From: Corallococcus soli
GTDB taxonomy: Bacteria; Myxococcota; Myxococcia; Myxococcales; Myxococcaceae
Reading direction: 5' to 3'
Assembly: GCF_014930455.1 (NCBI RefSeq)
Contig: NZ_JAAIYO010000003.1
Coordinates: forward strand, 186,001-250,000
DNA: 64,000 nt
The first letter of the stretch is position 1, and every line of letters begins with the position of its first letter. The position numbers were made by a program, and so were the translations under genes. Positions 3 through 20,298 of the stretch are shown here, piece by piece. A model generated the notes under the pieces. The model was not told where the DNA came from. It did no database searches and was given only the letters and a program-made list of their open reading frames with translations.

Positions 3-3000
3 GCGCCAGAGCTCACCCTGGCGACCGCGCGGCGCCTGCCCCTCGTCATCCTGGTCGAGCGGGATGCAGCGCAAACCGCCAGCCTCGACCTCGTGGCGAA
101 CCTCACCGGGGTCCGCCGCATCCGGTCCACGGGGGAGACTGAAGCGGTCCGTGAGCTCGTGGAGGCGATGCGCACCCCCGAGGTGGTCATCTGTGAGATC
201 GACCGTGCCGGAGACGCGGTGGCTGAGCCCGAGCCCGTGGCGCTTGGAGCCTCGTGGCTCGCGGCCTTCCGGCAGGGCGTGCGGGGCAGTGGCCTTGGCT
301 CCGTCTTCCTGGCGGGGGATGGCAGGCTGAGCGCGGTGGCGGATGCGCTCTCCTCGGATGGCGTTTCGGTCCGGACCGTGCGGCATGATCAGAACCTGGG
401 GTTCGTCGCGGATGGCGCTTCACGCTCGTCGGCGCGGCCCGCCGCCATCATCCTCCCCGAGGAATGGGCGCTCTCGTCGGTGCTGTCGGGGGTGGGCGAG
501 GCCCATCTCGATCAGGTTTCCCTCGTGGTGCTCGTCGTGGCCGCCACGCCGCCCGGGCCCTGGCTCGGCACGCTGAAACACCTGTCCAAGTCGGCGACGG
601 TCGTGGCCTCGGTGGAGGACCTGGCGGGTGCCATCCAGGAGGCGGCCGAGCTCAGCCGTGCCGGCGCTCCAGGCCCGGTCTGCCTGGTCTGTCCCGCGAA
701 CCTCGCGGCGTCTTCGGCAGCCCAGCCCTCCCGTGCCCCGACGGTGCCATCGCTCGCCAGGGGGGCTCCCACGGACGCGGAGCTGGACGCCGTGGCGCAG
801 ATGTTCATTCGCTCGAAGCAGCCCGTGATCTTCGTAGGCCGTGGCGCGCGTGAGGGCGCCGCCGAGCTGGTGGAGCTGGCGCACCGGACGGGGGCTGTCG
901 TCGCGTCGACGCTGTCCGGCAAGGGCGTGTTCCCCGAAACGGATCCGCTGTGGTTGTGGGGCGGCTTCGGTCCCTTGTCCCCTCCGCCCATGAAGGCCAT
1001 CGCGGAGACGTGTGACGGGGCGCTCATCCTCGGCGCGCGGCTCAGTGAGCTGGGAAGCGCCCATTTCCGCGCCCGCTTCCCGGCGTATTGCTTTCATGTG
1101 GACATCGACCCGACGGTGCCGAACAAGGCGGCCTCCGCGATCGGTATCACCTCGGACGCCAGGGTCTTCCTCCAGGCTTTGCTGAAGCACCTCGACAGGC
1201 ATTACCGCGAATACCTTCCGCGCAGGGGGGAAGGCATTCTTGAACAGCTCCAGTCGGCCCGAGCCTGGGTGGACGCGGACGTCCGCGAGCGGAGCGAAGA
1301 GGGCAGGGGACTCGACCCCTATGAGCTCGTCCGCACGGTCCAGGCCGGGCTTCCGCCGGAGACGGTCTTCTGCGCGGATTCAGGCAATGGGACGATCCAC
1401 GCACTGGAGGCGCTGCGACTCACCGCGCCGGACCGTTTCCTCTGCCCCGCGGACTACAACAGCATGGGCTATTCGGTTCCGGCCGCGCTTGGTGCCGCGA
1501 GCACGCACCCGTCGGTGCCGGTGGTGTCCTTCGTCGGAGACGGCGCGTTCCTGATGACAGGGCTCAAGGCCCTGCTGGGAGAACCCGAAGCCCCGCCCAT
1601 CATGACCGTCGTGCTGCGCGACCGCCGTCTGGGGATGATTGGAGACATCCAGCGCGCGACGAACCGCCCGGAGGTCTGCACCCAGCTCTCTGAGTTCGAC
1701 CTCGGGGCCTTCAAGGACAGACTCCCGGGACTGCGCTTCGAATCGGTGTCCACGCCCGATGCGTTGGCCCGGAGCATCCAGGCCGCGCGGGTCGCATGGG
1801 AGGCAGGGCAGGGCACGCTCATCGAGTGCCTGATCAACCCCGAGACGAAGTCCTACTTCTTCCAGGGGGCGCTCACGTCGGCTGCGGTTCCCGTGCCCAG
1901 ACGGGTCCCCCGGTTGCCCGCGGTGGAGGGTCCTCCTGGAGACCTCTGGGCGGTCATCGAACGGGCGAAGGATCGCTTCGCGGAGCGGGTCGCGCTCCGC
2001 GACGGCGCCAGGCAGTACCGATACGCAGAAGTGCATGCCCGCGTGTCGCGGCTCGCGCAGTTCCTCCGGGAGCAGGGCGTGGGGCCGGGCCATGTCGTCG
2101 GGGTGATGCTGCGCAACCGGTCGGAGGTCGTCGAAGCGCACTTCGCCGCCGCGGGGCTCCGGGCGGTCGTGTTGAACATCAACGTCCGGCTCGCCGCGCC
2201 AGAGCTGAAGGACATTTTCAAGCAAGCCGGCGTGAAGTGGCTCATCGCCTCGACGGATTTCGCGCCGACCCTCTCCGAAACCCTCTCCATGGGAGAGCTG
2301 CGGCTGGGGGGCGTGCTCTGGGTGGCCCCTGGGCAGGAGGCTCGTGCGCTTCCCGAGCTGACGGACAGGTTCGGCACGACGCGCGACTACGAGGCAGCCC
2401 TCACCGCGTCAATGACCCCCTTCGTCCCGGAGACTGGCTCTGAGTTCGACGCGTTCCATCTGTATTACACCAGCGGCACGACAGGCTTCCCGAAGGCAGT
2501 CCGCCTCACCCATCGCCAGGTCTTCCATCACGCGGTCGCCACCGCGGAGGAGATGCACATCACCGGCGAGGATGTCTGGGGACACTTCTCGCCCATGTAT
2601 CATGTCGTGGATGCCTTCGCGATCTACGCCCTGACCTGGCTGGGCGGGCAGCATGTGGTGGTCTCGGATCCGGATCCGACCCACTTCCTGAGCCTGCTCG
2701 CGAGCGAGCGCATCACCTGCACGAACCTCGCGGCGGCGGCTGCGCACTTCCTCATCCACAGTCCGGACCTGGGGACGCACGACTTCAGCCGGCTGCGCAT
2801 CCTCTCCTGCGGCGGCTCCGCCCTGGATGCCGGCTCGGTGGAGCGCCTCATCCAGATCTTCGGCTGCGAGATCTTCATGTCGTACGGCATGACGGAGTGC
2901 TGTGGGAAGATCTCCATGTCTCTCCTGTCAGGCGAGCACCGCCAGCTCAGCCAGAGTGAGCAGTTCGAGCGCATTGCCACGTCGGGGCGTCCGTTCAAGC

Positions 3001-5216
3001 TCATGGACGTGCGGATCGTCGATGAGCATGGGGCGGACGTCGCGCGCGACAACGAGACGATGGGCGAGGTGTGGATCCGCGGGCTCACGGTCTTCAGCGG
3101 CTACTTCAATGACGACGCCGCGACCCGCGAGGCGTTCCAGGACGGCTGGTTCAAGACGGGAGACCTGGCGACGATCCGGCCGGACGGGTACCTGACGATC
3201 GCGGGCCGCAAGAAGGACATGATCATCTCCTATGGGGAGAACGTGTATCCGGGGGAGGTCGAACGGGCCCTGGGGCTCCACCCGGGGGTCCAGCAGGTGG
3301 CCGTCTACGGCATTGAACACCCGACGGCCGGAGAGGTCGTCAAGGCGGTCATCCGCCTCCGTGCGGGTCATTCACTGACGGCGCGCGAGGTCCTGGCGTT
3401 CTGCCGGGGGCAGCTGGCTGGCTACAAGGTGCCCGCGGAGGTGGAGTTCATTGATGAGATGCCCATGACCGGGACCTTCAAGGTGGACAAGCTCCGCCTC
3501 AAGCGTCGGGAGGCCCGGACGGCCGAGGCGCCCGCGCCCGGAGCGAAGGCTCCGATGGCTCGCGTGCGTCCCCGGACCGAGGTCGTCGAGCGGGTCCTGA
3601 AGATCGTCGAGGGCATCCGCGTGTCGGATGAGGGGCCGGTGTCCACCACGGCGACCCTCTGGAGCCTTGGGTTGGATTCCATCCTGTTCCTCACGCTGCT
3701 CCGGGAGCTTGAGAAGGAATTCCAGCTCAAGCTGGACCCGAACTTCCTGGTCCAGAACAACACCCTTGAGATGATCACCCGCGCGATTGCCCAGGCGCCG
3801 GTCGAATCCCAGACAGCCGTGCCGGTTTCCCACGAGGCTCCACCGCTGCTGAACGAAGCGCTCCTGTCTTCCTGGAGTGCGACCGTGGAGCGGCGGCTGG
3901 GTGGCTTCGAGTCGCTGGTCTATCAAGCCAACCGCCGGGGCCTGTTGCACATCAACCCCGTGGTGGACATGGAAGGCCCTGTCGACCCGGCGGTGATGCG
4001 CGAAGCCGCGGCGCTGTTGGAGAAGCGCCACCCCTATCTGCTGGCCACCATCGTCGAGAAGAAGAAGGGTGACTTCTTCCTGGAGTACAAGCCGGGCCGC
4101 CACCTGGAGGTCGTCTTCCTTGAGGAGTCCGGGACGGAGCCCCTGGAGCAGCTGGTGGCGCGTCACCTGCGGGACCCGGAGCAGAAGAAGATCCTGTTTC
4201 TCCGCGCGAAGGGTTCGCGCGAGGCCCATCAGGTCATCCCCATCTTCTGGCATTGCTACCTGGAGGTTCACGCCTTCTTGCGGCTGGTGCGGGAGCTGTT
4301 CGAGCTTCATGAGCAGCTGATCGCCGGGACGCCCGTGGACGTGAGGCCCCAGCCGCTCCCGGTGGCCCGGGAGGAGCTGTTCTCCCGGCTGCCGGGGATG
4401 GGGCTGGGTCCAACGGTCCAGCACCCGGATCCGGGCATCGCCAAGACGGGCCAGGAAGTCCTGTCGGCCCTGGAGATCTTCCGGGCGAACAAGTTCAAGG
4501 CGCCGTTCGGGGTCCAGAAGAAGCGGGACTCGGAGATCTCGGTGGCGGGTGCTTCCCGCTCGGTGGTGATGGGCAGGGAGGCGACCCGGCACATGCTGGG
4601 CGCCGTGGCGCGGCAGCAGAGTTCGCTGACGGGCGCCCTGTCCGCGGCGCTCTGCCTGGTCGCGCGGGAGCTGTTCTGCCCGGCGCCCAGGCCCCACCGG
4701 ATGATCCTCGTGGGCTCGTTCGACGCGCGACCGCTCCTGAACCTGCCGACGGAGACGCTGGGGTACTACGCCACGTACCCGAAGTTCCTGGTGGACGTCG
4801 GTCCCGCCACCGGCTTCTGGGACCTGGCGCGCCACTTCCACCGCGAGAATCAGGCCTACATCGACCAGCGGACCTACGCGGGGATGGACGCGGAGCACTT
4901 CAGCAAGCTGGCGGGCGGCTTCGGGGCGGTCGCGAAGCTGCTCTGGGTCCCCGGGATGTGGGAGCAGTTCACCGCGCCGGGGCGGGCCTTCATCGTCAAC
5001 CTGGGCGTGCTCGACTCAGGGCTCAGGCGGTTCAAGCTGCGCGGGGTGAAGGTGCTCCAGGACATCCCGGCGCTGGCCGTCTACACCTACGTCCTCGACG
5101 GGAGCCTCCACCTGCAGACGTGCTCCCAGCTGGCCCCCGAGGCCGCTGATCGCTTCGCGGGCCACATCGAGGCGCGCTTCAGCGGGATGACGGCCTCAGC
5201 GGCCGTCCAGGGGTAG
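3..5216 (+). CDS. ThDP enzyme / adenylation / carrier protein / condensation-like megasynthase (5' truncated)
   Basis: The frame is open to the left edge, so the true start lies outside the window; the GTG at 93 is only the first internal start-like codon. Domains in order: about 60 residues of an unidentified upstream region; an acetolactate-synthase-like ThDP enzyme (PYR-like part about nt 230-700, central part 770-1180, ThDP-binding part 1310-1850 with GDG at 1536-1544); an acyl-CoA-ligase/NRPS-type adenylation domain (about 1930-3520; TSGTTGFPK near 2469-2495, YGMTE, GWFKTGD, GRKKDMIISYGENVYPGEVE); a carrier protein with LGLDS, whose phosphopantetheine Ser is codon 3678-3680; and a C-terminal condensation/acyltransferase-like domain (about 3850-5190). 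The family logic is carboligation or decarboxylation of a 2-oxo acid, acyl activation, tethering and transfer, as in natural-product assembly. The product is unknown. Several active-site motifs are atypical (see findings). No neighbouring biosynthetic gene follows downstream, so any cluster lies to the left. Confidence 0.85.
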   Translation, partial: APELTLATARRLPLVILVERDAAQTASLDLVANLTGVRRIRSTGETEAVRELVEAMRTPEVVICEIDRAGDAVAEPEPVALGASWLAAFRQGVRGSGLGSVFLAGDGRLSAVADALSSDGVSVRTVRHDQNLGFVADGASRSSARPAAIILPEEWALSSVLSGVGEAHLDQVSLVVLVVAATPPGPWLGTLKHLSKSATVVASVEDLAGAIQEAAELSRAGAPGPVCLVCPANLAASSAAQPSRAPTVPSLARGAPTDAELDAVAQMFIRSKQPVIFVGRGAREGAAELVELAHRTGAVVASTLSGKGVFPETDPLWLWGGFGPLSPPPMKAIAETCDGALILGARLSELGSAHFRARFPAYCFHVDIDPTVPNKAASAIGITSDARVFLQALLKHLDRHYREYLPRRGEGILEQLQSARAWVDADVRERSEEGRGLDPYELVRTVQAGLPPETVFCADSGNGTIHALEALRLTAPDRFLCPADYNSMGYSVPAALGAASTHPSVPVVSFVGDGAFLMTGLKALLGEPEAPPIMTVVLRDRRLGMIGDIQRATNRPEVCTQLSEFDLGAFKDRLPGLRFESVSTPDALARSIQAARVAWEAGQGTLIECLINPETKSYFFQGALTSAAVPVPRRVPRLPAVEGPPGDLWAVIERAKDRFAERVALRDGARQYRYAEVHARVSRLAQFLREQGVGPGHVVGVMLRNRSEVVEAHFAAAGLRAVVLNINVRLAAPELKDIFKQAGVKWLIASTDFAPTLSETLSMGELRLGGVLWVAPGQEARALPELTDRFGTTRDYEAALTASMTPFVPETGSEFDAFHLYYTSGTTGFPKAVRLTHRQVFHHAVATAEEMHITGEDVWGHFSPMYHVVDAFAIYALTWLGGQHVVVSDPDPTHFLSLLASERITCTNLAAAAAHFLIHSPDLGTHDFSRLRILSCGGSALDAGSVERLIQIFGCEIFMSYGMTECCGKISMSLLSGEHRQLSQSEQFERIATSGRPFKLMDVRIVDEHGADVARDNETMGEVWIRGLTVFSGYFNDDAATREAFQDGWFKTGDLATIRPDGYLTIAGRKKDMIISYGENVYPGEVERALGLHPGVQQVAVYGIEHPTAGEVVKAVIRLRAGHSLTAREVLAFCRGQLAGYKVPAEVEFIDEMPMTGTFKVDKLRLKRREARTAEAPAPGAKAPMARVRPRTEVVERVLKIVEGIRVSDEGPVSTTATLWSLGLDSILFLTLLRELEKEFQLKLDPNFLVQNNTLEMITRAIAQAPVESQTAVPVSHEAPPLLNEALLSSWSATVERRLGGFESLVYQANRRGLLHINPVVDMEGPVDPAVMREAAALLEKRHPYLLATIVEKKKGDFFLEYKPGRHLEVVFLEESGTEPLEQLVARHLRDPEQKKILFLRAKGSREAHQVIPIFWHCYLEVHAFLRLVRELFELHEQLIAGTPVDVRPQPLPVAREELFSRLPGMGLGPTVQHPDPGIAKTGQEVLSALEIFRANKFKAPFGVQKKRDSEISVAGASRSVVMGREATRHMLGAVARQQSSLTGALSAALCLVARELFCPAPRPHRMILVGSFDARPLLNLPTETLGYYATYPKFLVDVGPATGFWDLARHFHRENQAYIDQRTYAGMDAEHFSKLAGGFGAVAKLLWVPGMWEQFTAPGRAFIVNLGVLDSGLRRFKLRGVKVLQDIPALAVYTYVLDGSLHLQTCSQLAPEAADRFAGHIEARFSGMTASAAVQG

Positions 5217-11663: not shown

Positions 11664-14297
11664 TCAGGCTCCGGAGAACTGGAGCGACCAGTCTCCTTCG
11701 GCGGTCAGTGCGATGTGCAGGCGGGGCGGAACCGAGCCGCCCGCCAGCTTCTGCAACAGCTCCCGGGACAGCGCCGGCATCAGCGAGCCCTGGAGGATCT
11801 GCTCCAGGTTGCGGGCGCCCGTCTCGGACTCGGTGCAGCGGCGGGCAAGCTCGTCCAGCAGCTCCGGCGCCAGCGTCGTCTCCACGCCGTGCGCCGCGCG
11901 CACGCGGCCCACCAGCTTGTCGAGCTTCATCTCCGCGATCTGCCGCATCACGTCTCGCTGCACCGGGCCGAACGGGACGATGGTCATGCGCGCCAGCAGC
12001 GCCGGCTTGAAGTGCTGGCTCAGCGCCGGGCGGATCGCCGCCATCACCTGTTCGGACGTGGGCGTGGCGTCCCCGTCGAACATCCGCATCACGATGTCCG
12101 ACGCCAGGTTGCTCGTCAGGATGATGACCGTGTTGCGGAAGTCCACGGCGCGGCCCTCGCCGTCCGTCAGCATTCCCTTGTCGAACACCTGGTAGAAGAG
12201 GTTCATCACCTCCAGGTCGGCCTTCTCGCACTCGTCGAGCAGCACCACGGAGTAGGGTCGCTGGCGCACGGCCTCCGTCAGCAGGCCGCCCTCGCCATAG
12301 CCCACGTAGCCCGGCGGCGAACCGATGAGCCGCGACACGGTGTGCTTCTCCTGGAACTCGCTCATGTTGAGCGTCGTCATGAACCGCTCGCCGCCGTAGA
12401 GGCTGTCGGCCAGCGCCAGCGCCGTCTCCGTCTTGCCCACGCCGCTGGGCCCCACGAAGAGCACCACGCCAATGGGCGTGTCCGGGTTGCGGATGCCCGC
12501 CTGCGAGATGCGGATGATCTCCGCCACCTTGCGCACCGCCGCGTCCTGTCCCCGCACACGCGAGGCCAGCTTCGACTCCAGGCTCAGCACCGCTTCAATC
12601 AGGTCGCTGCGCATCTTGCCCACGGGCACGCCCGTCCAACTGGACACGACCCGCGCCACGATGTCCGCGTCCACGTCCGCGTGGACCAGGGGCTCCTCGC
12701 CGCGCACCCGGGCCAGCGCCAACGACGCCGCGTCCACCTCCTCCTTCAGCGCCTGCCGGTCCGCGTCCGGCGCCGACGTGGCGAGCGCCTTCCTCGCCGC
12801 GGACAGCCGCGCCACCCCCGCACGCTCCGTCTCCCAGCGCCCGTGCAGCGTGGCCAGTTGATCCCTCACCGCCCCCAGCCGGGCCTCCACCTGCTCCACC
12901 GCGTCCGCGTCTCCGGGATGGCCTTCCGACAGATCGCGACTGCGGGCATCACGCTCGCGCTCCAGGCCGGCGATCTGCTGCTCCAGGGCCACCAGCTCAT
13001 CGGGCCGCGTGGACTGTTCAATCTTCACGCGCGCCGCCGCCGTGTCCAGCAGGTCCACGGCCTTGTCCGGGAGCTGCCGGCCGGAGATGTACCGCTGCGA
13101 CAGCCGCACGGCGGCCGTGACGGCCTCGTCGCGGATGGTGACGCCGTGCGCGGCCTCGTAGGTCGCCCGGAGCCCCCGCAGCATCAGCTCCGCGTCCTCG
13201 ACGCCCGGCTCCTCCACCTTCACCGGCTGGAAGCGGCGCTCCAGCGCGGCGTCCTTCTCGAAGTACTTCTTGTATTCGCTCCAGGTGGTGGCCGCGAGCG
13301 TGCGCAGCTCGCCTCGCGCCAGCGCCGGCTTGAGCAGGTTCGCCGCGTCGCTGCCGCCCGCGGAGCCCCCCGCGCCGATGATGGTGTGCGCCTCGTCGAT
13401 GAAGAGCACGATGGGGGTGGGGGAGGCCTTCACCTCGGAGATGACCGCCTTGAGGCGGTTCTCGAACTCGCCCCGCACGCCCGCTCCGGCCTGCAACAGG
13501 CCCAGGTCCAGGCCCAGCAGCTCCACGTTCTTCAGCGCGTCGGGCACCTCACCCTGGACGATGGCCCACGCCAGGCCCTCCACCAGCGCCGTCTTCCCCA
13601 CGCCGGGTTCGCCCACCAGGATGGGGTTGTTCTTCCGGCGCCGCGACAGGATGTCCACCATCTGGCGGATCTCCCGGTGCCTGCCGAAGATGGGGTCGAT
13701 CTTCCCCTCGCGCACCCGGCCCGTGAACGACGTGGTGAAGCGCTTGAGGGATTCGTCCCCACGCCCCCCGGACTGCGCTGACGCGGAGGCGCCCGCGGGC
13801 GTGCCCTCCGGGGGCGCGGCCTCCACCGTCTCCGCGGACGGCCGCAGCACCACCTCCAGCGAGTCCATCAGCTCATCGCGCGAGATGGCGTCCAGCTCCG
13901 GGAAGAACTCCGCCGTGTAGCGGCTCCTCCGGGCGATGAACTGCGCGAACAGCACGCCGGAGCGCAGGCGCGTGGCGCCCTGTTCCACCGACGCCTGCAA
14001 CCACGCGTCCTCGATCCACTGGAAGAGCGTCTCGGAGAACACGGGCCGGCCCGGGGTGCCGGCGCGCATGCCCTGGAGGGCGCGGTCCACGCTGGCGGCC
14101 AGCTTGCGCCGGTCCACCTGGAAGTGGCTCAGGATGCGCGCGACGTCGGAGTCCTCCGCCTCCAGCAGCTGCGCGAGCAGGTGCTCGACGACGATTTCAT
14201 AGAAGCGTCCGGTGCTCGCACGGGCGACGGCCGCCTCCAGCAGACGGGTGGACGTGGGCGTCAGGCGACGGACGAGCGCCTTGGGATCGACACGAAT
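11664..14297 (-). CDS. clpV: T6SS AAA+ ATPase ClpV (TssH), ATT start codon
   Basis: ClpV disassembles contracted TssB/TssC sheaths so that subunits are reused. The product is about 877 aa. It has an N-terminal double-Clp-repeat domain, a first AAA+ module with Walker A GEPGVGKTAL and FIDEAHT, a coiled-coil middle domain (ERERDARSRDL region), a second AAA+ module with GPSGVGKTET and VLLDECEKAD, and the Clp C-terminal domain. The longest ATG/GTG/TTG frame starts at 14117, inside the N domain. The homologous N-terminus (RVDPKALVRRLTP...) continues to 14297, where an ATT codon lies 8 bases after GAGGAGG. No ATG, GTG or TTG occurs in this frame between 14117 and the upstream stop at 14397-14399. 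Confidence 0.93.
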   Translation of the reverse strand: MRVDPKALVRRLTPTSTRLLEAAVARASTGRFYEIVVEHLLAQLLEAEDSDVARILSHFQVDRRKLAASVDRALQGMRAGTPGRPVFSETLFQWIEDAWLQASVEQGATRLRSGVLFAQFIARRSRYTAEFFPELDAISRDELMDSLEVVLRPSAETVEAAPPEGTPAGASASAQSGGRGDESLKRFTTSFTGRVREGKIDPIFGRHREIRQMVDILSRRRKNNPILVGEPGVGKTALVEGLAWAIVQGEVPDALKNVELLGLDLGLLQAGAGVRGEFENRLKAVISEVKASPTPIVLFIDEAHTIIGAGGSAGGSDAANLLKPALARGELRTLAATTWSEYKKYFEKDAALERRFQPVKVEEPGVEDAELMLRGLRATYEAAHGVTIRDEAVTAAVRLSQRYISGRQLPDKAVDLLDTAAARVKIEQSTRPDELVALEQQIAGLERERDARSRDLSEGHPGDADAVEQVEARLGAVRDQLATLHGRWETERAGVARLSAARKALATSAPDADRQALKEEVDAASLALARVRGEEPLVHADVDADIVARVVSSWTGVPVGKMRSDLIEAVLSLESKLASRVRGQDAAVRKVAEIIRISQAGIRNPDTPIGVVLFVGPSGVGKTETALALADSLYGGERFMTTLNMSEFQEKHTVSRLIGSPPGYVGYGEGGLLTEAVRQRPYSVVLLDECEKADLEVMNLFYQVFDKGMLTDGEGRAVDFRNTVIILTSNLASDIVMRMFDGDATPTSEQVMAAIRPALSQHFKPALLARMTIVPFGPVQRDVMRQIAEMKLDKLVGRVRAAHGVETTLAPELLDELARRCTESETGARNLEQILQGSLMPALSRELLQKLAGGSVPPRLHIALTAEGDWSLQFSGA

Positions 14298-14379
14298 GGG
14301 AACACCCTCCTCGACGGCGTGAAAGGAATGTCCCGGTTCCCCGGGGGCCGTGAGCCCCGGAGCGCCGGTGGCGCGAAGC

Positions 14380-15426
14380 TCACGCGCCCGGAACGTTCAG
14401 CCGGTTCTGGTGGCCGTTGCCCAGCCAGGTGTCCCGGCCAAGCCGCGAGGCCTTGTGGTCGTACATGGACAGGAAGAAGGTCTGGCTGACGCTCTCCGTG
14501 AGCCCCAGCTCCAGTTCGTACTCCAGCGGATCCCGCAGGAAGAGCGCCATCACCTCGCGCACCATCGGCAACAGGTCGCCGTCCGGCAGCAGGCGCTTGT
14601 AGGCCCGCGGAGGCAGCGGCGCGATGGCGAGCTGCATCTTCCCGGTGCGATCAAACGCCTTGCCCCCCAGCAGCATGTCGCGGCCCAGCTGGTTGAACGA
14701 ATGCCCCAGCCGCGCCCGCGCGTCGATGTCCACCCAGCGCCCCACGAACTGGCGCACCGTGACGGTGGCCCCCTCCAGGTCGCCCCCCAGCGCCTCCTGG
14801 AGCGCGACCTCCAGCTTCTCCGCGGTGCGCACCTGACTGGCCAGCAGCGGGACGATGCGCAGGAGCCGTGAGATGGGCAGCTTGCTGTCGGCGTGCTGCT
14901 CGTAGGTGTCGAACCCCGCCAGCGCGAGCAGCCGCCGGGACCACTGGTCCGTGAAGCCCGTGTTGGATTCGCTGGTGACGCGGTAGCGCGTCTCCAGCCG
15001 GTAGAGCAGCGACAGCAGCCGGTGGTGGAAGAGGTCCAGGAACTCGCGCCGCACGGCGTGGTCCGGATCCTCCTGCGCCACCTCCTCCGCCAGGTACATG
15101 GGCAGCGGGCTGACCGTGCCGGTGAGCCCCAGGAAGCGCGTGGCGACCTCGAAGAGCGGCCTGCGGGCGTGCGCGTCCTCGGCGCGCACCGGCACCTCGC
15201 GCAGCGTGACGCTGCTCACGTCGCCGGAGGAGAAGCCCAGCGACGGGTCGTGCCGGAAGCGGATCATCTCCTCGCTCACCGGCCCCACGTCGCCCACCCG
15301 CACGGCGCCCTCCGTCAGCCGCTCCAGGTAGGCCACGAGCGGAAAGAACCCCAGCCGGGGCGCCGCCTCCTCCAGCTCGCGGCTGGCCGCTACGAGATGC
15401 GCTGGGAGCCGTTCCTCGGGCGCCAC
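14380..15426 (-). CDS. tssG: T6SS baseplate protein TssG
   Basis: TssG joins TssF, TssK and TssE to form the baseplate wedge. The 348-aa product shows the family pattern: an N-terminal LGFFPLVAYLERL, then RFRHDPSLGF, SLLYRLETRYRV and the QLGRDMLLGGKAFDR region that precedes the C-terminus. The start is the GTG at 15426, with GGAG six bases upstream, overlapping the end of tssF by 37 bp in a different frame. The same frame stays open to 16593, but that part is antiphase to tssF and is not coding. Length is normal for the family. Confidence 0.93.
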   Translation of the reverse strand: MAPEERLPAHLVAASRELEEAAPRLGFFPLVAYLERLTEGAVRVGDVGPVSEEMIRFRHDPSLGFSSGDVSSVTLREVPVRAEDAHARRPLFEVATRFLGLTGTVSPLPMYLAEEVAQEDPDHAVRREFLDLFHHRLLSLLYRLETRYRVTSESNTGFTDQWSRRLLALAGFDTYEQHADSKLPISRLLRIVPLLASQVRTAEKLEVALQEALGGDLEGATVTVRQFVGRWVDIDARARLGHSFNQLGRDMLLGGKAFDRTGKMQLAIAPLPPRAYKRLLPDGDLLPMVREVMALFLRDPLEYELELGLTESVSQTFFLSMYDHKASRLGRDTWLGNGHQNRLNVPGA

Positions 15427-17144
15427 GAGAACTCCGTTTGAGAAGGGTGGAGGCGGACGTTCAGTTCGCTGAACGAGTTGATGGTCACGTTCGAGGCCAG
15501 CAGCTCGTCCAGGATGGAGCCGAAGAGGAAGGCGTCTCCCACGCCCTGGAAGTTCTTCTCGTCCACGTCGATGACGGTGAGGCTGCCGCGCAGGGGCGCG
15601 CCCTCCAGGAAGCGCGTCACCGGCTTCGCGTTCAGCGCCTGCACCGCATCCACGCGCTGCCGGCTGGCGCGCGAGGCCAGGTTGTCCGCCAGCGCCTGGA
15701 AGTTGTAGAGGTCCAACAGCCGCCGCAGCGCCGCCGCGTCCGACAGCGAGCGCTGGTTGACGGCCAGGTGCGACAGCAGCCGCCAGTGCAGCTCCGAACC
15801 CAGCGGCGCCCGCGCGGGCCGGCTCAGCGGGGCGATGTTCTTGAACTTCGCCTGCGTGGGCGACGCCGACGTGGACACCGTGAGGTCGCCCACCTGGAGC
15901 CGCGACGGCAGCGAGCGGTTGGTGCACGTCAGGTCGATGGAGAGCACCTCCTCCGACCCCAGCAGCGGCGCCACGTCGCGCGGCGTCTCCAGCGTGAGGT
16001 ACGTGTCGATGCCGTCGTCGATGGGCGAGTGCACCCGCCGCACGCGGAAGAAGGACGTCTCCGCGCCCTCGCCCCGGGTGTGCTCGAAGTCGAAGAAGGG
16101 ATGGTACGCGCGGCGCTCGTTGCGCCCGGCCTGCATGCCCGTCACCGCGTCCACCGAATAGATCTCCGAGTGCTGCGGCGGCAGGTCCGAGGCCCGCAGC
16201 AGGTGCTCGCGGTCCAGCGCGTGGTGGAGGATGGGGTCGGCCGGCACCTGGAACAGGTTGATGACCGGCGCGCAGTGCAGGCGGAACATCTCCCGGGTGA
16301 TGCGCGCGTCCATGGGCGGCGGCCGCTCCAGCTCGAAGGCGATCTCGAACCGGTCCTCCGTGATGGAGGAGGCGGCGACGTCCAGGCCCCGCACGTCGAA
16401 GAAGAGGAACTTCTCCGGCAGCGTGAAGTACTCTTGGAGGAGCCGGTAGCCCTCCGTGGCCCGGGGCCAGGGCAGCAGCCTGAAGTCGCGGTCGAAGCCC
16501 GTGGCGCGCACCGCGTCCGGCGGCAGGCGCAGGCCCGGCCCGCTGTCGGAGGCCCCGCGCACGCGCACGGCCTTGCAGTAGCGCAGCAGCCACAGCAGCA
16601 CGAGCGAGCTGGCGGACAGCTCCCCGTGGATGAAGAGGCGCACGCCGGCGGCGCGGAATACCTCCGCGCGGCCCTGCTCGTGCGTCTGGAAGAACAGGCG
16701 CAGCACCGGCGACGTCAGGGATGAGCGATCCAGCATCGCGTCCTGGAGCGTCAAGGGCAGCAGGTCCACGTCGGACGTGGTGCGGAAGACGCAGGAGGTG
16801 CCGTCGAGCGGCTGGGAGGCCACCTCCGCGCCCGCGGGCAGGCGCGAGCGCCCGCGCAGGGCCCGCACCTGCGGCGTGAACTCCACGATGGTGGTGGCGG
16901 GCAGGGGCCGCAGGTAGTGGGGCAGCAGCAGCTCCGTGAGGCCGTGCACCATCTCCGGGACGTTGTCGTCCACGCGCTCGCGGATGCGGGCGGTGAGGAA
17001 GGCGAAGCCCTCCAGCAGGCGCTCCACGTCCGGGTCCGCGCCGCGCTCCACCAGCAGGCCCGCGACGCTGGGGTTGGCCAGCCCGAAGGCGCGGCCCATC
17101 TCCCGCAGGTACGTCAACTCACTCAGGTAGTACTTGCTGAACAT
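15390..17144 (-). CDS. tssF: T6SS baseplate protein TssF
   Basis: TssF (584 aa, VasA/ImpG family) is the main structural subunit of the baseplate wedge. The N-terminus MFSKYYLSELTYLREMGRAF and the following DPDVERLLEGFAFL are diagnostic, as is ELLLPHYLRPLPATTIVEF. The rest shows the usual central beta-rich region and a C-terminal RPRNG-like end. It starts 37 bp after tssE and overlaps tssG. No unusual residues were noticed. Confidence 0.95.
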   Translation of the reverse strand: MFSKYYLSELTYLREMGRAFGLANPSVAGLLVERGADPDVERLLEGFAFLTARIRERVDDNVPEMVHGLTELLLPHYLRPLPATTIVEFTPQVRALRGRSRLPAGAEVASQPLDGTSCVFRTTSDVDLLPLTLQDAMLDRSSLTSPVLRLFFQTHEQGRAEVFRAAGVRLFIHGELSASSLVLLWLLRYCKAVRVRGASDSGPGLRLPPDAVRATGFDRDFRLLPWPRATEGYRLLQEYFTLPEKFLFFDVRGLDVAASSITEDRFEIAFELERPPPMDARITREMFRLHCAPVINLFQVPADPILHHALDREHLLRASDLPPQHSEIYSVDAVTGMQAGRNERRAYHPFFDFEHTRGEGAETSFFRVRRVHSPIDDGIDTYLTLETPRDVAPLLGSEEVLSIDLTCTNRSLPSRLQVGDLTVSTSASPTQAKFKNIAPLSRPARAPLGSELHWRLLSHLAVNQRSLSDAAALRRLLDLYNFQALADNLASRASRQRVDAVQALNAKPVTRFLEGAPLRGSLTVIDVDEKNFQGVGDAFLFGSILDELLASNVTINSFSELNVRLHPSQTEFSWRPRNGSQRIS

Positions 17145-17181
17145 CCCCGTCCCCCGTCTCTTCGTGCGCCCCGGAACCCGC

Positions 17182-17577
17182 TCACCACAGGTCCACCTTG
17201 CCGCCCGGATGGATGTGCGTATGGAACCGCAGGGCGCCGCGCTGGCCCCGCCAGGACAGCTGCGCGCTGATGTCGAACATCAGGGCCGTGGGGTCGTCCT
17301 CGTTGGGCTGGTGGGTCACCACCACGCTCTTCAGGCGCGGCTCGAACTCCTGGATGGCCGCGCGGATGGACTGCTGCATCCTCGGGATGGCGGACGGGTA
17401 CATGTGCACGACGTCGTTGAAGTCGAGGATGCCGAAGTTCGGCGCCGCGGCGGATTCACCCCGACGCGTGTTGAGCAGCACGCGCAGGTGCGCGGCCACC
17501 GACTCGACGATGTCCCCCTGGGACACCAGCGAGCCCTGACCGGCCGCGATGCGCGAAAGCAGTCCTCGTTCAGCCAT
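17182..17577 (-). CDS. tssE: T6SS baseplate protein TssE (gp25-like)
   Basis: TssE (131 aa) is the gp25-like baseplate subunit that starts sheath polymerisation. It shows SVAAHLRVLLNTRRGES, PNFGILDFNDV and an IQEFEPRLKSVVV segment typical of the lysozyme-like gp25 fold. It follows hcp after a 72-bp gap that holds a strong hairpin and precedes tssF by 37 bp. Confidence 0.92.
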   Translation of the reverse strand: MAERGLLSRIAAGQGSLVSQGDIVESVAAHLRVLLNTRRGESAAAPNFGILDFNDVVHMYPSAIPRMQQSIRAAIQEFEPRLKSVVVTHQPNEDDPTALMFDISAQLSWRGQRGALRFHTHIHPGGKVDLW

Positions 17578-17607
17578 GGGGGCGCGGGGGCGGGGCGTGG
17601 ACGCGAA

Positions 17608-17633
17608 GCGCCCTTCCCATGCTGGAAGGGCGC
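17608..17633 (-). promoter_or_regulatory. Strong hairpin between hcp and tssE
   Basis: Perfect 10-base arms (GCGCCCTTCC and its complement) with a six-base loop lie in the hcp-tssE gap. There is no T-run after it on the minus strand, so it is not a classical terminator. It may protect or attenuate the mRNA so that hcp is made in excess of tssE. That role is inference. Confidence 0.5.
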
Positions 17634-17649
17634 CCCGCGAACAGTGCGA

Positions 17650-18141
17650 CTAGCGCTGCGTCGCCCAGGAGTCCTCGTGCGTCACGCCACCATTCGTGTA
17701 CGTCCAGTTGATGGTGTGGAACACGAAGGTGACCTCCTCCAGGGGCGGCTCGGTGGAGGTGGCGGGGATGATGGTGTTGGGCACCGTCTGCTTGATGCTG
17801 CCGATGCGGCCCTGGGCGAAGCCCACCGTGTAGAACTGCTCGGTGGTGCCGTCACCCGTGGGGTTGGGGCGGAAGAACTTCAGCACGCCTTCCACCACCT
17901 GGTTCTCCGCGAGCGCCTTCATGAGCAGCGGCGAGCTCTTGTCGATGCGCTTGCGGATGAGCAGGGGCGGGTACTGGCGGCGCCCCGTGGCCAGGCCGGA
18001 GCCCGCCTCGCGGGCCGTGATGACCTCCTGCTCGTAGTAGACGCACTCGATGGAGCCCTCGCGACCGAGGCTCGTCTGGGTGCTCTCGCCCTTGATCTCG
18101 CTGCCGTTCGCCTTCAGGTACAGGTGTACTGTCTCAGCCAT
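17650..18141 (-). CDS. hcp: T6SS tube protein Hcp (TssD)
   Basis: Hcp (163 aa) forms the hexameric inner tube that is expelled with the spike and can carry effectors. The N-terminal VHLYLKANGSEIKGES, the SIECVYYEQEV strand and the C-terminal FVFHTINWTYTNGG are family hallmarks. The start has GAGGTG seven bases upstream. It is flanked by the widest gaps in the operon (129 bp to tssC and 72 bp to tssE), so it may have extra promoter or processing signals for high expression. Confidence 0.95.
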   Translation of the reverse strand: MAETVHLYLKANGSEIKGESTQTSLGREGSIECVYYEQEVITAREAGSGLATGRRQYPPLLIRKRIDKSSPLLMKALAENQVVEGVLKFFRPNPTGDGTTEQFYTVGFAQGRIGSIKQTVPNTIIPATSTEPPLEEVTFVFHTINWTYTNGGVTHEDSWATQR

Positions 18142-18270
18142 TTTCGGCCACCTCGTGCGCGGCTGACGGCCCGCGCGTTGGACCCGGCCCGCGGGAGGGC
18201 GGATCGGGTGTGATGGAGCCCCCCGACTGCTTGGGCGTTACGACAGGCGCAGCTCAGATGCGAGAGGGGC

Positions 18271-19761
18271 TCACTCCTTGTCGAGCTTTCCAACCAAAGA
18301 CAGCGTGAAGGACACGCCCATGTATTTGAAATGCGGGCGCACCTGCAGGTTGCAGCGGTACCAGCCGGGCTGGCCCTCCACGTCCTCCACCGTCACGCGC
18401 GCGGCGCGCAGCGGGCGGCGCGAGCGCACCGCGGGGGCCGGGTCATCCATGTCCGCGATGTACTGGCTCATCCACTGGTTGAGTTCGCGCTCCAGGTCCG
18501 CGCGCTCCTTCCAGCTGCCAATCTGTTCGCGCTGGAGCACCTTCACGTAGTGCGCAAGCCGCGTCATGATGAACATGTAGGGCAGCTGCGTGCCCAGCCG
18601 GTAGTTCGTCTCCGCCGCCTTGGCCTCCGGCGAGGAACCGAAGAACTTGGGCTTCTGCGTGGAGTTGGCGGAGAAGAACGCCGCGTTGTCCGCGTCCTTG
18701 CGGAACACCAGGCCGATGAAGCCCTCCTCGGAGAGCTCGAACTCGCGGCGCTCCGTGAGCATGATCTCCGTGGGGATCTTCGTCTGGATCTCCCCCATGG
18801 CCTCGTACTGGTGCAGGGGCAGGGTCTCCACCGCGCCGCCGGACTGCGGCCCGATGATGTTCGGGCTCCAGCGGAACTTGCCGAACGAGTCCGTCACGCG
18901 CGTGGCGAACGCCGTGGAGGCGTAGCCCCACAGGTAGCGGTCATGGTGGCCCACGACGTCCTCGGTGAAGTTGAACGCCTTCACCGGCACCGTCTTCTCC
19001 CCGTAGGGCAGCCGCAGCAGGAAGCGCGGCAGGCACAGGCCCACGTAGCGCGCGTCCTCGCTCTCCCGGAACGAGTGCCAGCGTGCGTACTGGGGTCCTT
19101 CGAAGAAGGACTTGAGGTCCTTGAGGTTCGGCAGGTTGAGGAAGCTCTCCTCGCCGAAGAACTCAGGGCTGGCGTTGGCGATGAACGGCGCGTGCGCCAT
19201 GGCCGCCACGGACGCGCACTTGCGCAGCAGGTCCACGTCCTGCGGGCCGGGCCCGAAGTCGTAGTTGCCCGTGATGAGGCCGTAGGGCTTGCCGCCGAAG
19301 ACGCCGTACTCGTTGGAGTAGGCGATGCGGTACAGGCCCGACTTCACGACCTCCGGCGCGTCGTCGAAGTCCTTGAGCAGGTCCGCCTTGGAGACGTTGA
19401 GCATCTCCACGCGGGTGTTCTCGCGGAAGTCCACGCGGTCCACCAGGAAGCGCAGGGACCGCCACGACGACTCCAGCGTCTGGAACTGCTTGTCGTGGAG
19501 GATCTCATTGACCTGCGCGCTCATGCGCTGGTCGATCTCCGCGATCATCGCGTCCACGAGCGCCTTGTCGATGCGCTCCTCGCCGCGATCCGGCGCCAGC
19601 ATCTCCGTGATGAAGGCCTGCACGCCCTTGCGGGCGATGTCATAGCCCTCGTCGCGGGGCTTGAGCTTCGCCTCGGAGAGGATTTCGTCGAGCAACGAGT
19701 TGGAGCCGAGAGCGATCGCGGCTTCCGCGGCGGGGTTCGGGGTCTGGGTTTGCGTGCTCAT
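18271..19761 (-). CDS. tssC: T6SS sheath large subunit TssC (VipB)
   Basis: TssC (496 aa) pairs with TssB to build the contractile sheath. Typical segments are FQTLESSWRSLRFLVD, VFGGKPYGLITGNYDF and FLRLPYG. The C-terminal RSRRPLRAARVTVEDVEG is followed by HFKYMGVSFTLSLVGKLDKE. It follows tssB by 18 bp. Length and ends are normal for the family. Confidence 0.96.
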   Translation of the reverse strand: MSTQTQTPNPAAEAAIALGSNSLLDEILSEAKLKPRDEGYDIARKGVQAFITEMLAPDRGEERIDKALVDAMIAEIDQRMSAQVNEILHDKQFQTLESSWRSLRFLVDRVDFRENTRVEMLNVSKADLLKDFDDAPEVVKSGLYRIAYSNEYGVFGGKPYGLITGNYDFGPGPQDVDLLRKCASVAAMAHAPFIANASPEFFGEESFLNLPNLKDLKSFFEGPQYARWHSFRESEDARYVGLCLPRFLLRLPYGEKTVPVKAFNFTEDVVGHHDRYLWGYASTAFATRVTDSFGKFRWSPNIIGPQSGGAVETLPLHQYEAMGEIQTKIPTEIMLTERREFELSEEGFIGLVFRKDADNAAFFSANSTQKPKFFGSSPEAKAAETNYRLGTQLPYMFIMTRLAHYVKVLQREQIGSWKERADLERELNQWMSQYIADMDDPAPAVRSRRPLRAARVTVEDVEGQPGWYRCNLQVRPHFKYMGVSFTLSLVGKLDKE

Positions 19762-19779
19762 GTTCGCGCTCGTTTCGGA

Positions 19780-20298
19780 TTACTTGGTCGGGGCGGCGGC
19801 TGCGGCGATGTCTTCGGGCTTGAGGCCCAGCTCCTCGATGAGCTTCTTGCGGCCCTCCTCATCGTTGAGCATGGACTGCAGCTTCTTGCGGAAGGCGGGC
19901 AGGTTGCCCAGGGGCCCCTTGAGCGCGTTGAGGGCGCTGCGCAGCTCCAGGAGCTTCTTGAGCTCCGGCACCTGGTTGACCACGCTTTCGGGCGCGAAGT
20001 CAGACAGGCTCTTGAACTGGAGCGTGACGGCCATGGTCGCGCCCGGCTCGTTGGAGAGCTTGTCCGCCGCGGAGAGCGTGACGCGCAGGTCCTGCTGGGC
20101 CATCACCTCGTTGAAGTTGCTCTTGTCGACGTTGATGGGCGCCCGCTGCTCCAGCGGACGGTCATCCTCGCGGCCGGTGAAGTCTCCCATCACGAGAGTC
20201 TTCAGCGGCAGTTCCACCTGCTCCTGCGCATTGCCGGTGGCGGGCTTGTAGACGATGTTGACGCGTTCGGTCGGGGCGACGGAGTTTTCCTTGCTCAT
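19780..20298 (-). CDS. tssB: T6SS sheath small subunit TssB (VipA)
   Basis: TssB (172 aa) is the small sheath protein and provides the contact recognised by ClpV. It shows RVNIVYKPATG, PLKTLVMGDFTGRED, DKSNFNEVMAQQDL and the C-terminal PAFRKKLQSMLNDEEGR. It lies between tssA (27 bp gap) and tssC (18 bp gap). Confidence 0.96.
   Translation of the reverse strand: MSKENSVAPTERVNIVYKPATGNAQEQVELPLKTLVMGDFTGREDDRPLEQRAPINVDKSNFNEVMAQQDLRVTLSAADKLSNEPGATMAVTLQFKSLSDFAPESVVNQVPELKKLLELRSALNALKGPLGNLPAFRKKLQSMLNDEEGRKKLIEELGLKPEDIAAAAAPTK

What the first reader, a model, noticed from the sequence alone, without database searches (positions are those of the whole stretch)
3..5216. ThDP enzyme fused to adenylation, carrier and condensation-like domains
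One open frame joins an acetolactate-synthase-type module to a complete acyl-activating module, a phosphopantetheine carrier with LGLDS, and a condensation/acyltransferase-like domain. ThDP carboligases are usually separate proteins, so a cis-acting chain release or chain initiation by C-C ligation is possible. The gene begins outside the window, so more domains may exist.
Basis: partly seen in the sequence, partly recalled or inferred. Interest (0 to 1): 0.7.

Follow-up and report, generated by a model that had tools for sequence, protein, structure and literature searches.

The report
Thiamine enzyme fused to assembly line
In a few soil myxobacteria one 2,000-residue protein joins a doubled vitamin-B1-dependent carbon-bond-forming enzyme, with one of its two active sites apparently decayed, to parts that activate, carry and transfer an acid, at the end of a fatty-acid-like assembly operon; its product is unknown.

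Summary
The frame at window 3-5216 is the last 87% of one gene of 2,005 codons that starts 802 bases left of the window, in a Corallococcus genome.

The missing start holds a second ThDP copy, so the ThDP part is tandem: PYR1-PP1-PYR2-M-PP2. The catalytic Glu is only in PYR1 and GDG only in PP2; PYR2 (Asp for Glu) and PP1 (no GDG) are decayed in all four orthologues and change faster (significant only against G107). I read it as two fused subunits with one surviving site. An acyl-activating domain, a Ser carrier and a PapA/condensation-like acyltransferase follow.

The fusion is intact in 4 of 195 Myxococcota genomes, each time ending a PUFA-synthase-like operon; 9 of 13 genomes with operon gene g3 lack it.

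[quoted passage not shown] This chemistry is inferred. Nine searches of open-licence papers showed no such architecture.

The parts
3..5216 (+). Part inside the window of the fused gene (called g8 here); full gene is G000:C3:185199-191216, residues 1-2005 from the ATG; residue n begins at window 3n-804
   Evidence: same frame in G013, G005, G107. PYR1 (residues about 15-185, catalytic E63) lies wholly left of the window
3..212 (+). Right-hand part of PP1 (residues about 200-338; begins left of the window): degenerate pyrophosphate domain; TDA(E/D), where GDG is expected, lies just left of the window
   Evidence: no Pfam match above cut-off, best E 0.08; profile aligns to the PP columns of standalone relatives, P 3.5e-4, probability 37%; PP1+PYR2 model aligned over both domains with DXPS 9hn8_A, Z 14.8, rmsd 10.7, 261 aligned
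231..713 (+). PYR2 (residues 345-505): degenerate pyrimidine domain, RHDQ (window 381-392) where relatives have (D/H)EQ
   Evidence: TPP_enzyme_N 44.5 bits, cut-off 26.8; hhalign 98.5%, E 3.4e-15; VIA Z 14.2-15.5 in the 50 rows shown, mostly rmsd about 3 over about 150 residues
762..1202 (+). M, central TPP domain (residues 522-668)
   Evidence: TPP_enzyme_M 91.3 bits, cut-off 30.4
1266..1877 (+). PP2 (residues 690-893): GDG at 1536-1544; Asp808 at 1620-1622 at the place of the usual Asn
   Evidence: TPP_enzyme_C 65.7 bits, cut-off 21.9; motifs in four orthologues
1959..3518 (+). Acyl-activating (AMP-binding) domain with its C-terminal subdomain (residues 921-1440)
   Evidence: PF00501 242.4 bits, PF13193 68.5 bits; best solved relatives are acyl-CoA synthetases
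3582..3800 (+). Carrier domain (residues 1462-1534), LGLDS, Ser1494 at 3678-3680
   Evidence: PF00550 36.5 bits, cut-off 20.8
3804..5213 (+). C-terminal PapA5/condensation-like acyltransferase (residues 1536-2005); WHCY(L/M)EV in place of HHxxxDG, His1685 at 4251-4253
   Evidence: NCBIfam PapA5 E 7.5e-7 (28.4 bits, cut-off 396), PapA_C 20.8 bits under the cut-off of 30, Condensation 9.8 under 30.6; alignment with four standalone relatives

Best explanation
Shown by sequence: one polypeptide holds two fused copies of a ThDP subunit, PYR1-PP1 and PYR2-M-PP2 (PP1 recognised only weakly), followed by acyl-activating, carrier and acyltransferase-like domains, encoded last in a PUFA-synthase-like operon. 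Inferred with fair support: the two copies pair as the two subunits of an ordinary ThDP dimer do, so that PYR1 (Glu63) and PP2 (GDG, Mg2+/diphosphate) make one working site, while PYR2 and PP1 make the decayed one. [quoted passage not shown] this acid, prone to lose CO2, is adenylated by the next domain, held as a thioester on Ser1494, and passed by the C-terminal domain to a hydroxyl or amine of the chain made by the upstream KS/KR/DH genes. The fusion would serve to catch an unstable acid at once.
For: Two TPP_enzyme_N domains above cut-off. E63 in PYR1 and GDG in PP2, neither in PYR2 or PP1, in 4 of 4 orthologues. dN/dS of PYR1+M+PP2 against PP1+PYR2: 0.154 v 0.324 (own-G107, 0 of 2000 permutations as large), 0.141 v 0.318 (G005-G107, 1 of 2000). 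PYR1 and M-PP2 each group with the same standalone enzymes G051/G165/G042 (support 87/92 and 96/98). AlphaFold2 folds PP1 and PYR2 as separate alpha/beta domains, PYR2 matching PYR domains at Z 14-15. Closest solved ThDP chain by sequence: BbmA 2.8e-43; CsmA, 1e-31, is the last of the 10 sequences listed; [quoted passage not shown] Domain order make-activate-carry-transfer; gene order conserved in G107, 77% identical.
Against: No biochemistry, no known product. Acetolactate synthase chains (from 2.8e-36) score better than CsmA and not far below BbmA, so the reaction is not fixed by similarity. PP2 has Asp where Asn is usual (as in the closest standalone relatives). The rate difference is not significant for own-G013 (181 of 2000) and own-G005 (135 of 2000). 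PP1 is recognised only weakly by profile (37%). The carrier and C-terminal domain also change fast (dN/dS up to 0.435 and 0.311), so speed alone does not mark decay. The C-terminal domain has lost the classical HHxxxDG except its second His.
Confidence: 0.35

Rival explanations
1. One reading: the acyl-activating domain loads an acid on the carrier, and the ThDP carbanion (from pyruvate or another 2-oxo acid) attacks the carrier thioester, releasing or starting the chain by C-C ligation.
For: ThDP and carrier in one chain; gene sits last in a chain-building operon.
Against: After such a ligation nothing would remain on the carrier for the C-terminal acyltransferase; CybE, a homologue of CsmA, joins two 2-oxo acids (passage). 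No ThDP enzyme acting on a carrier thioester was met in the passages read; NzsH couples indolepyruvate with pyruvate.
Confidence: 0.2
2. [quoted passage not shown]
For: Comparable activities, as separate proteins CybE, CybC and CybF, build furanolides (passages of PMC12395478); acyl-activating domain closest to fatty acyl- and feruloyl-CoA synthetases.
Against: The family of CybF was not stated in the passages and not compared here; no furanolide from these strains was met in the passages.
Confidence: 0.2
3. The ThDP part only decarboxylates or oxidises a 2-oxo acid and does no ligation; the rest is an independent acyl-transfer module.
For: The three closest standalone relatives lie by genes that do not suggest a ligation; a decarboxylase model scores in the same range as the acetolactate synthase models (147.9 against 161.6 bits).
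Against: Would give no reason for fusion to an acid-activating domain; closest solved chains are carboligases.
Confidence: 0.12
4. The whole ThDP part is a decayed scaffold without catalysis.
For: Two of four cofactor half-sites are lost, and PP2 has Asp for the usual Asn.
Against: The other two half-sites are kept in 4 of 4 orthologues and PYR1, M and PP2 have dN/dS 0.09-0.18 in the four pairs.
Confidence: 0.06
5. Assembly error or frameshift joining separate genes.
For: None found.
Against: Same frame in four assemblies; no separate copy of the tandem part or of the C-terminal domain at similar identity in 195 genomes.
Confidence: 0.01

Closest known systems
CsmA / BbmA / CybE, ThDP alpha-hydroxy-beta-keto acid synthases (furanolide pathway; NzsH/CqsB3 of carbazoles make such an acid too)
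   Same: BbmA is the closest solved ThDP chain by sequence; same PYR-M-PP plan; CybE works beside an acyl-CoA synthetase in a natural product pathway (passages of PMC12395478, PMC7466098)
   Different: BbmA and CsmA are chains of 584 and 552 residues; here tandem, one site decayed, fused to activating, carrier and acyltransferase domains; reaction untested here
[quoted passage not shown]
   Same: Two unequal ThDP subunits in one natural product enzyme, one with low homology to CsmA
   Different: The passages do not say whether they are one chain; no activating, carrier or acyltransferase domain mentioned; catalyses an indole ring expansion; no sequence compared here
Acetohydroxyacid (acetolactate) synthase
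   Same: Fold and superfamily; VIA Z 36.8 to 7tzz over 523 residues, rmsd 14.6
   Different: Far below the acetolactate synthase cut-off; no QW after GM(V/I), as recalled for that enzyme (GMIGDIQ here)
PUFA-type FAS/PKS joined to NRPS parts, as in zeamine (PMC3547906, passages only)
   Same: PfaA-like genes beside activating and condensation parts
   Different: Zeamine has a PfaD gene and reductases, and 'thiamine' does not occur in that paper's text; here no separate enoyl reductase domain was seen in the genes scanned and the carriers of g2 have Thr
PapA5 / condensation-domain acyltransferases
   Same: Weak profile match and retained His
   Different: HHxxxDG replaced by WHCY(L/M)EV; below Pfam and NCBIfam cut-offs

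Membership tests
ThDP decarboxylase-type enzymes (PYR-M-PP) | PYR, M and PP domains | tested here: met
   Pfam above cut-off: TPP_enzyme_N twice, M, C
ThDP decarboxylase-type enzymes (PYR-M-PP) | Catalytic Glu in PYR (stated in PMC2831816, passage) | tested here: met
   E63 in PYR1, 4 of 4 orthologues; PYR2 has Asp
ThDP decarboxylase-type enzymes (PYR-M-PP) | GDX25-30N in PP (same passage) | tested here: inconclusive
   PP2 has GDG and, 27 residues after its Asp, Asp808 in place of Asn, as have the closest standalone relatives; PP1 has no GDG
Biosynthetic acetolactate synthase (TIGR00118) | Score above the curated cut-off | tested here: not met
   161.6 bits for residues 341-900, 225.2 for the whole protein, against 538.35
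Alpha-hydroxy-beta-keto acid synthases (CsmA/BbmA/CybE) | Sequence relatedness | tested here: inconclusive
   BbmA is the best solved ThDP match, but acetolactate synthases follow and rank above CsmA
Alpha-hydroxy-beta-keto acid synthases (CsmA/BbmA/CybE) | Coupling of two 2-oxo acids with retention of one carboxylate | not testable with these tools
   needs an assay
NRPS-like module | Activating domain followed by Ser carrier | tested here: met
   PF00501, PF13193, PF00550 above cut-off; LGLDS
NRPS condensation domain | PF00668 above cut-off and HHxxxDG | tested here: not met
   9.8 bits against 30.6; WHCY(L/M)EV
PapA5-type acyltransferase | PF16911 / NCBIfam PapA5 above cut-off | tested here: not met
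   20.8 against 30; 28.4 against 396
PUFA synthase PfaA (TIGR02813), for the operon's g1 | Score above the curated cut-off | tested here: not met
   708.7 bits against 1010.1: PUFA-synthase-like, not PfaA

The most novel reading that the evidence does not exclude
A ThDP enzyme in which a subunit duplication was fused and then lost one of its two active sites, hard-wired in cis to adenylation, carrier and acyltransferase domains, so that one protein makes an unstable alpha-hydroxy-beta-keto acid, captures it as a carrier thioester and hands it to a PUFA-like chain: a self-supplying acyl donor module, a kind of assembly-line unit not met in the papers searched.
Probability: 0.3. Interest if true: 0.8.

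Novelty: new variant of a known kind. Interest (0 to 1): 0.6.

Why it matters
Carbon-carbon ligation by ThDP enzymes is normally done by free-standing dimers or tetramers (recalled). A ThDP domain inside a carrier-protein machine would add a C-C bond-forming step, and a way of catching labile keto acids, to assembly-line chemistry. The fused, half-decayed dimer would also be a natural single-site version of an enzyme class whose two sites are long debated to work in alternation (recalled, not looked up): it makes the question whether one site alone suffices directly testable. Two of the four hosts are named strains, so the product can be looked for.

Tried and rejected
Rejected: artefact (same frame in four assemblies). 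Rejected: plain acetolactate synthase fusion (scores far below cut-off). Rejected as a reading: that the 340 residues between PYR1 and M are a novel insert; they are a PP-like and a PYR domain, although MAFFT placed standalone enzymes across that gap. My own first recollection that NzsH uses a carrier-bound acceptor was wrong; the review says indolepyruvate plus pyruvate.

Led nowhere: nine literature searches that bore on the fusion or its relatives gave no description of it; most of the listed papers were unrelated, only open-licence papers are held, and I looked into passages of six papers only. The tenth search was on Thr carriers and gave nothing direct. PigD-type enzymes were not compared for want of a sequence. 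Plasmid records: with residues 1-900, 1,240 of 72,556 match, none at 60% identity or more, and one record has a place covering at least 80% of the query; it was not among the 15 and 60 rows shown, so I did not see it. With residues 1-534, which hold PYR1-PP1-PYR2, 553 of 72,556 match and none covers 80%; the 20 rows shown match PYR1 only. The genome-contig scan used two exact 8-residue patterns from close relatives, so it cannot exclude distant ones. Other phyla could not be searched as whole genomes. AlphaFold coordinates were not in the box, so no distances. Neighbours of the standalone relatives were uninformative.

Flaws in my own runs: the G043 row was out of frame (12 stops) and was ignored; three of 11 template rows (L005, L078, L079) were wrong frames, so its hhalign numbers are replaced. 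In the trees the PYR stretch of the own-genome row (ownALS) was cut by guess and was flagged as a long branch. Gene calls come from a simple GC-position caller of mine; it missed g6 in G005 and G107 (found in G107 by tblastn).

Full report
WHAT IS THERE. The window is G000:C3:186001-250000 of a 9.44 Mb genome in 68 contigs. Close copies of the gene lie in Corallococcus terminator CA054A and C. sicarius CA040B; these contigs have the lengths of those of G013 and G005, which the genome search puts in the window's genus, so I take the host to be a Corallococcus. The frame 3-5216 is real and continues leftwards: the gene runs from C3:185199 (ATG; GTG 12 bases earlier) to 191216, 2,005 codons from the ATG, 802 bases of it left of the window.

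ANATOMY. Pfam on the full protein gives TPP_enzyme_N (two stretches), TPP_enzyme_M, TPP_enzyme_C, AMP-binding, AMP-binding_C, PP-binding, and a sub-threshold PapA_C. Scanned in pieces, residues 1-194 and 341-520 are both TPP_enzyme_N (80.4 and 44.5 bits, cut-off 26.8), residues 521-900 M and C, and residues 195-340 match nothing convincing (best E 0.08). That gap is a degenerate PP domain by three weak to middling lines: its four-sequence profile aligns to the PP columns of 11 ThDP enzymes (P 3.5e-4, probability 37%; the other four domains 98.5-99.9%); AlphaFold2 gives it much the strand-helix order of PP2 (my reading); and the PP1-PYR2 model, made from four sequences only (pLDDT 74.1, pTM 0.71), aligns over residues 16-318 with the DXP synthase chain 9hn8_A (Z 14.8, 261 aligned, rmsd 10.7), in which PP precedes PYR (recalled). 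PYR2 is secure (Z 14.2-15.5 in the rows shown; hhalign 98.5%). So the ThDP part is PYR1-PP1-PYR2-M-PP2: two fused subunits, the first without M.

ONE WORKING SITE. In ThDP dimers the PYR domain of one subunit meets the PP domain of the other (general knowledge). The catalytic Glu is in PYR1 (NEASAA) and not in PYR2 (HDQ); the GDG is in PP2 and not in PP1 (TDAE/TDAD); 4 of 4 orthologues agree. If the fused copies pair as subunits, one site is intact and the other has lost both halves. Rates of change fit in part: dN/dS for PYR1, M, PP2 is 0.165, 0.129, 0.158 and for PP1, PYR2 0.341, 0.309 (own-G107). Pooled, the difference is larger than in all of 2000 permutations for own-G107 and in 1999 of 2000 for G005-G107, but not significant for own-G013 (181 of 2000 as large) and own-G005 (135 of 2000). 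The carrier and the C-terminal domain are about as fast as PP1 and PYR2 (0.322 and 0.288 for own-G107), so speed alone does not show decay. PP1 and PYR2 are still under purifying selection, so they have a role, presumably structural. In trees PYR1, and M-PP2, each fall with the standalone enzymes of G051, G165 and G042 (support 87/92 and 96/98), while PYR2 sits alone on a long branch. The model of the whole ThDP part has pLDDT 74.0 and pTM 0.49; it matches acetohydroxyacid synthase chains with Z 36.8 but rmsd 14.6, that is, the same parts placed differently, which a fused dimer would give but a poor model would too. The pairing was not measured.

THE REST OF THE PROTEIN. The acyl-activating domain is closest to a fatty acyl- and a feruloyl-CoA synthetase among solved chains (6.2e-67, 7.3e-67) and keeps motifs recalled for the family (YTSGTTG; the late Lys in TGTFKVDK). 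The carrier has LGLDS. The C-terminal 470 residues match PapA5 at E 7.5e-7, under the curated cut-offs; aligned with four standalone relatives, HHxxxDG is WHCY(L/M)EV, so the second His (1685) stays, in 8 of 8 rows, and Asp is Glu.

NEIGHBOURHOOD. Upstream on the same strand: KS-KS-AT (g1), tandem carriers and KR (g2), C45 Ntn acyltransferase with DH (g3), KS-KS (g4), KS-KS-DH (g5), 4'-phosphopantetheinyl transferase (g6), DH (g7), then this gene 57 bases on, with an acyltransferase gene (PF00698) divergent at the far end. g1 scores 708.7 bits on PfaA, under its cut-off of 1010.1: PUFA-synthase-like. No separate enoyl reductase domain was seen in these genes.

DISTRIBUTION. The C-terminal domain gives the same 4 at 75-100%; 16 more genomes of the 195 match weakly, at most 31% identity over parts. 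The operon gene g3 is present at 66-100% identity over nearly its length in 13 of 195 genomes; 4 of these 13 have the fusion. I read operon stretches from 5 of the 9 others (G129, G108 nearly whole; G126, G109, G140 in part): related genes, no g8. In G107 g1-g8 and the AT gene are in the same order; in G013 and G005 g3-g5, g7 and g8 were read in order. So the gene looks like an add-on to an older operon. Three of 16 Corallococcus genomes have it. In the 84,980-species collection a scan with two exact 8-residue patterns found only the two named Corallococcus records. Outside the phylum I could test only plasmid records, where none of 72,556 covers 80% of PYR1-PP1-PYR2, and the PDB.

WHAT IT DOES. 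The nearest solved ThDP sequence is BbmA (2.8e-43); CsmA (1e-31) is the last of ten listed, with acetolactate synthases between (from 2.8e-36). PDB titles call both 'ThDP-dependent HKA synthase'; I read HKA as alpha-hydroxy-beta-keto acid. [quoted passage not shown] Such a product has a free carboxylate, just what the next domain activates, and beta-keto acids lose CO2 easily, a reason to fuse. Hence my reading: make, activate, carry, transfer. The furanolide pathway uses comparable activities as three proteins, with an O-acylation by the third, so a convergent variant is a serious rival.

NOVELTY. Each domain is known. A two-subunit ThDP natural product enzyme is in print (ZigE, PMC13307353, passages), though the passages do not tell whether it is one chain. 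I found no ThDP domain fused to activating, carrier and acyltransferase domains in the nine searches that bore on it, which cover open-licence papers only. I rate it a new variant of a known kind.

LIMITS. Papers were seen as search listings and passages only, none in full. Statements on ThDP dimers, DXP synthase domain order, the acetolactate synthase QW motif and half-site alternation are recalled. All chemistry is inference.

Noticed in passing
L010:6089-9778 (G000:C3:171089-174778), left of the window: The tandem carrier domains of g2 have Thr where the phosphopantetheinylated Ser is expected (DLGIDTVKQVE). Of 25 loci cut around the best matches in Myxococcota, 21 show Thr motifs (one of them a Pro as well) and no Ser, and 4 only Ser (the sample leans to Thr, as the query has it). 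The Ser carrier of the fused gene is then the only Ser carrier seen in this operon; whether Thr carriers are modified is unknown to me.
   Followed up: partly
window 11664-20298 and L072:7247-13680: The operon lies some kilobases from type VI secretion genes in this genome (TssF, Hcp, VipB, a ClpB/ClpV-like ATPase, minus strand) and in G129 (VasE, DotU, IcmF a few genes after the operon); not seen among the few flanking genes scanned in G107 and G108. Chance or link was not tested.
   Followed up: partly
L010:9756-11867: A C45-family Ntn acyltransferase fused to a PKS dehydratase domain (g3); 13 of 195 Myxococcota genomes have it at 66% identity or more.
   Followed up: no
L045:6518-10000 (G107): In G107 a modular PKS gene (KS-AT-DH, runs off the stretch) lies next to the divergent AT gene of the operon.
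   Followed up: no
L010:1912-6099: The first KS of g1 has Tyr where the active-site Cys is expected (DAGYASSL) but keeps other KS motifs; the second has ACASSL.
   Followed up: no
L028:16414-17775 (C. sicarius): An AHH-nuclease domain protein lies shortly after the fused gene.
   Followed up: no
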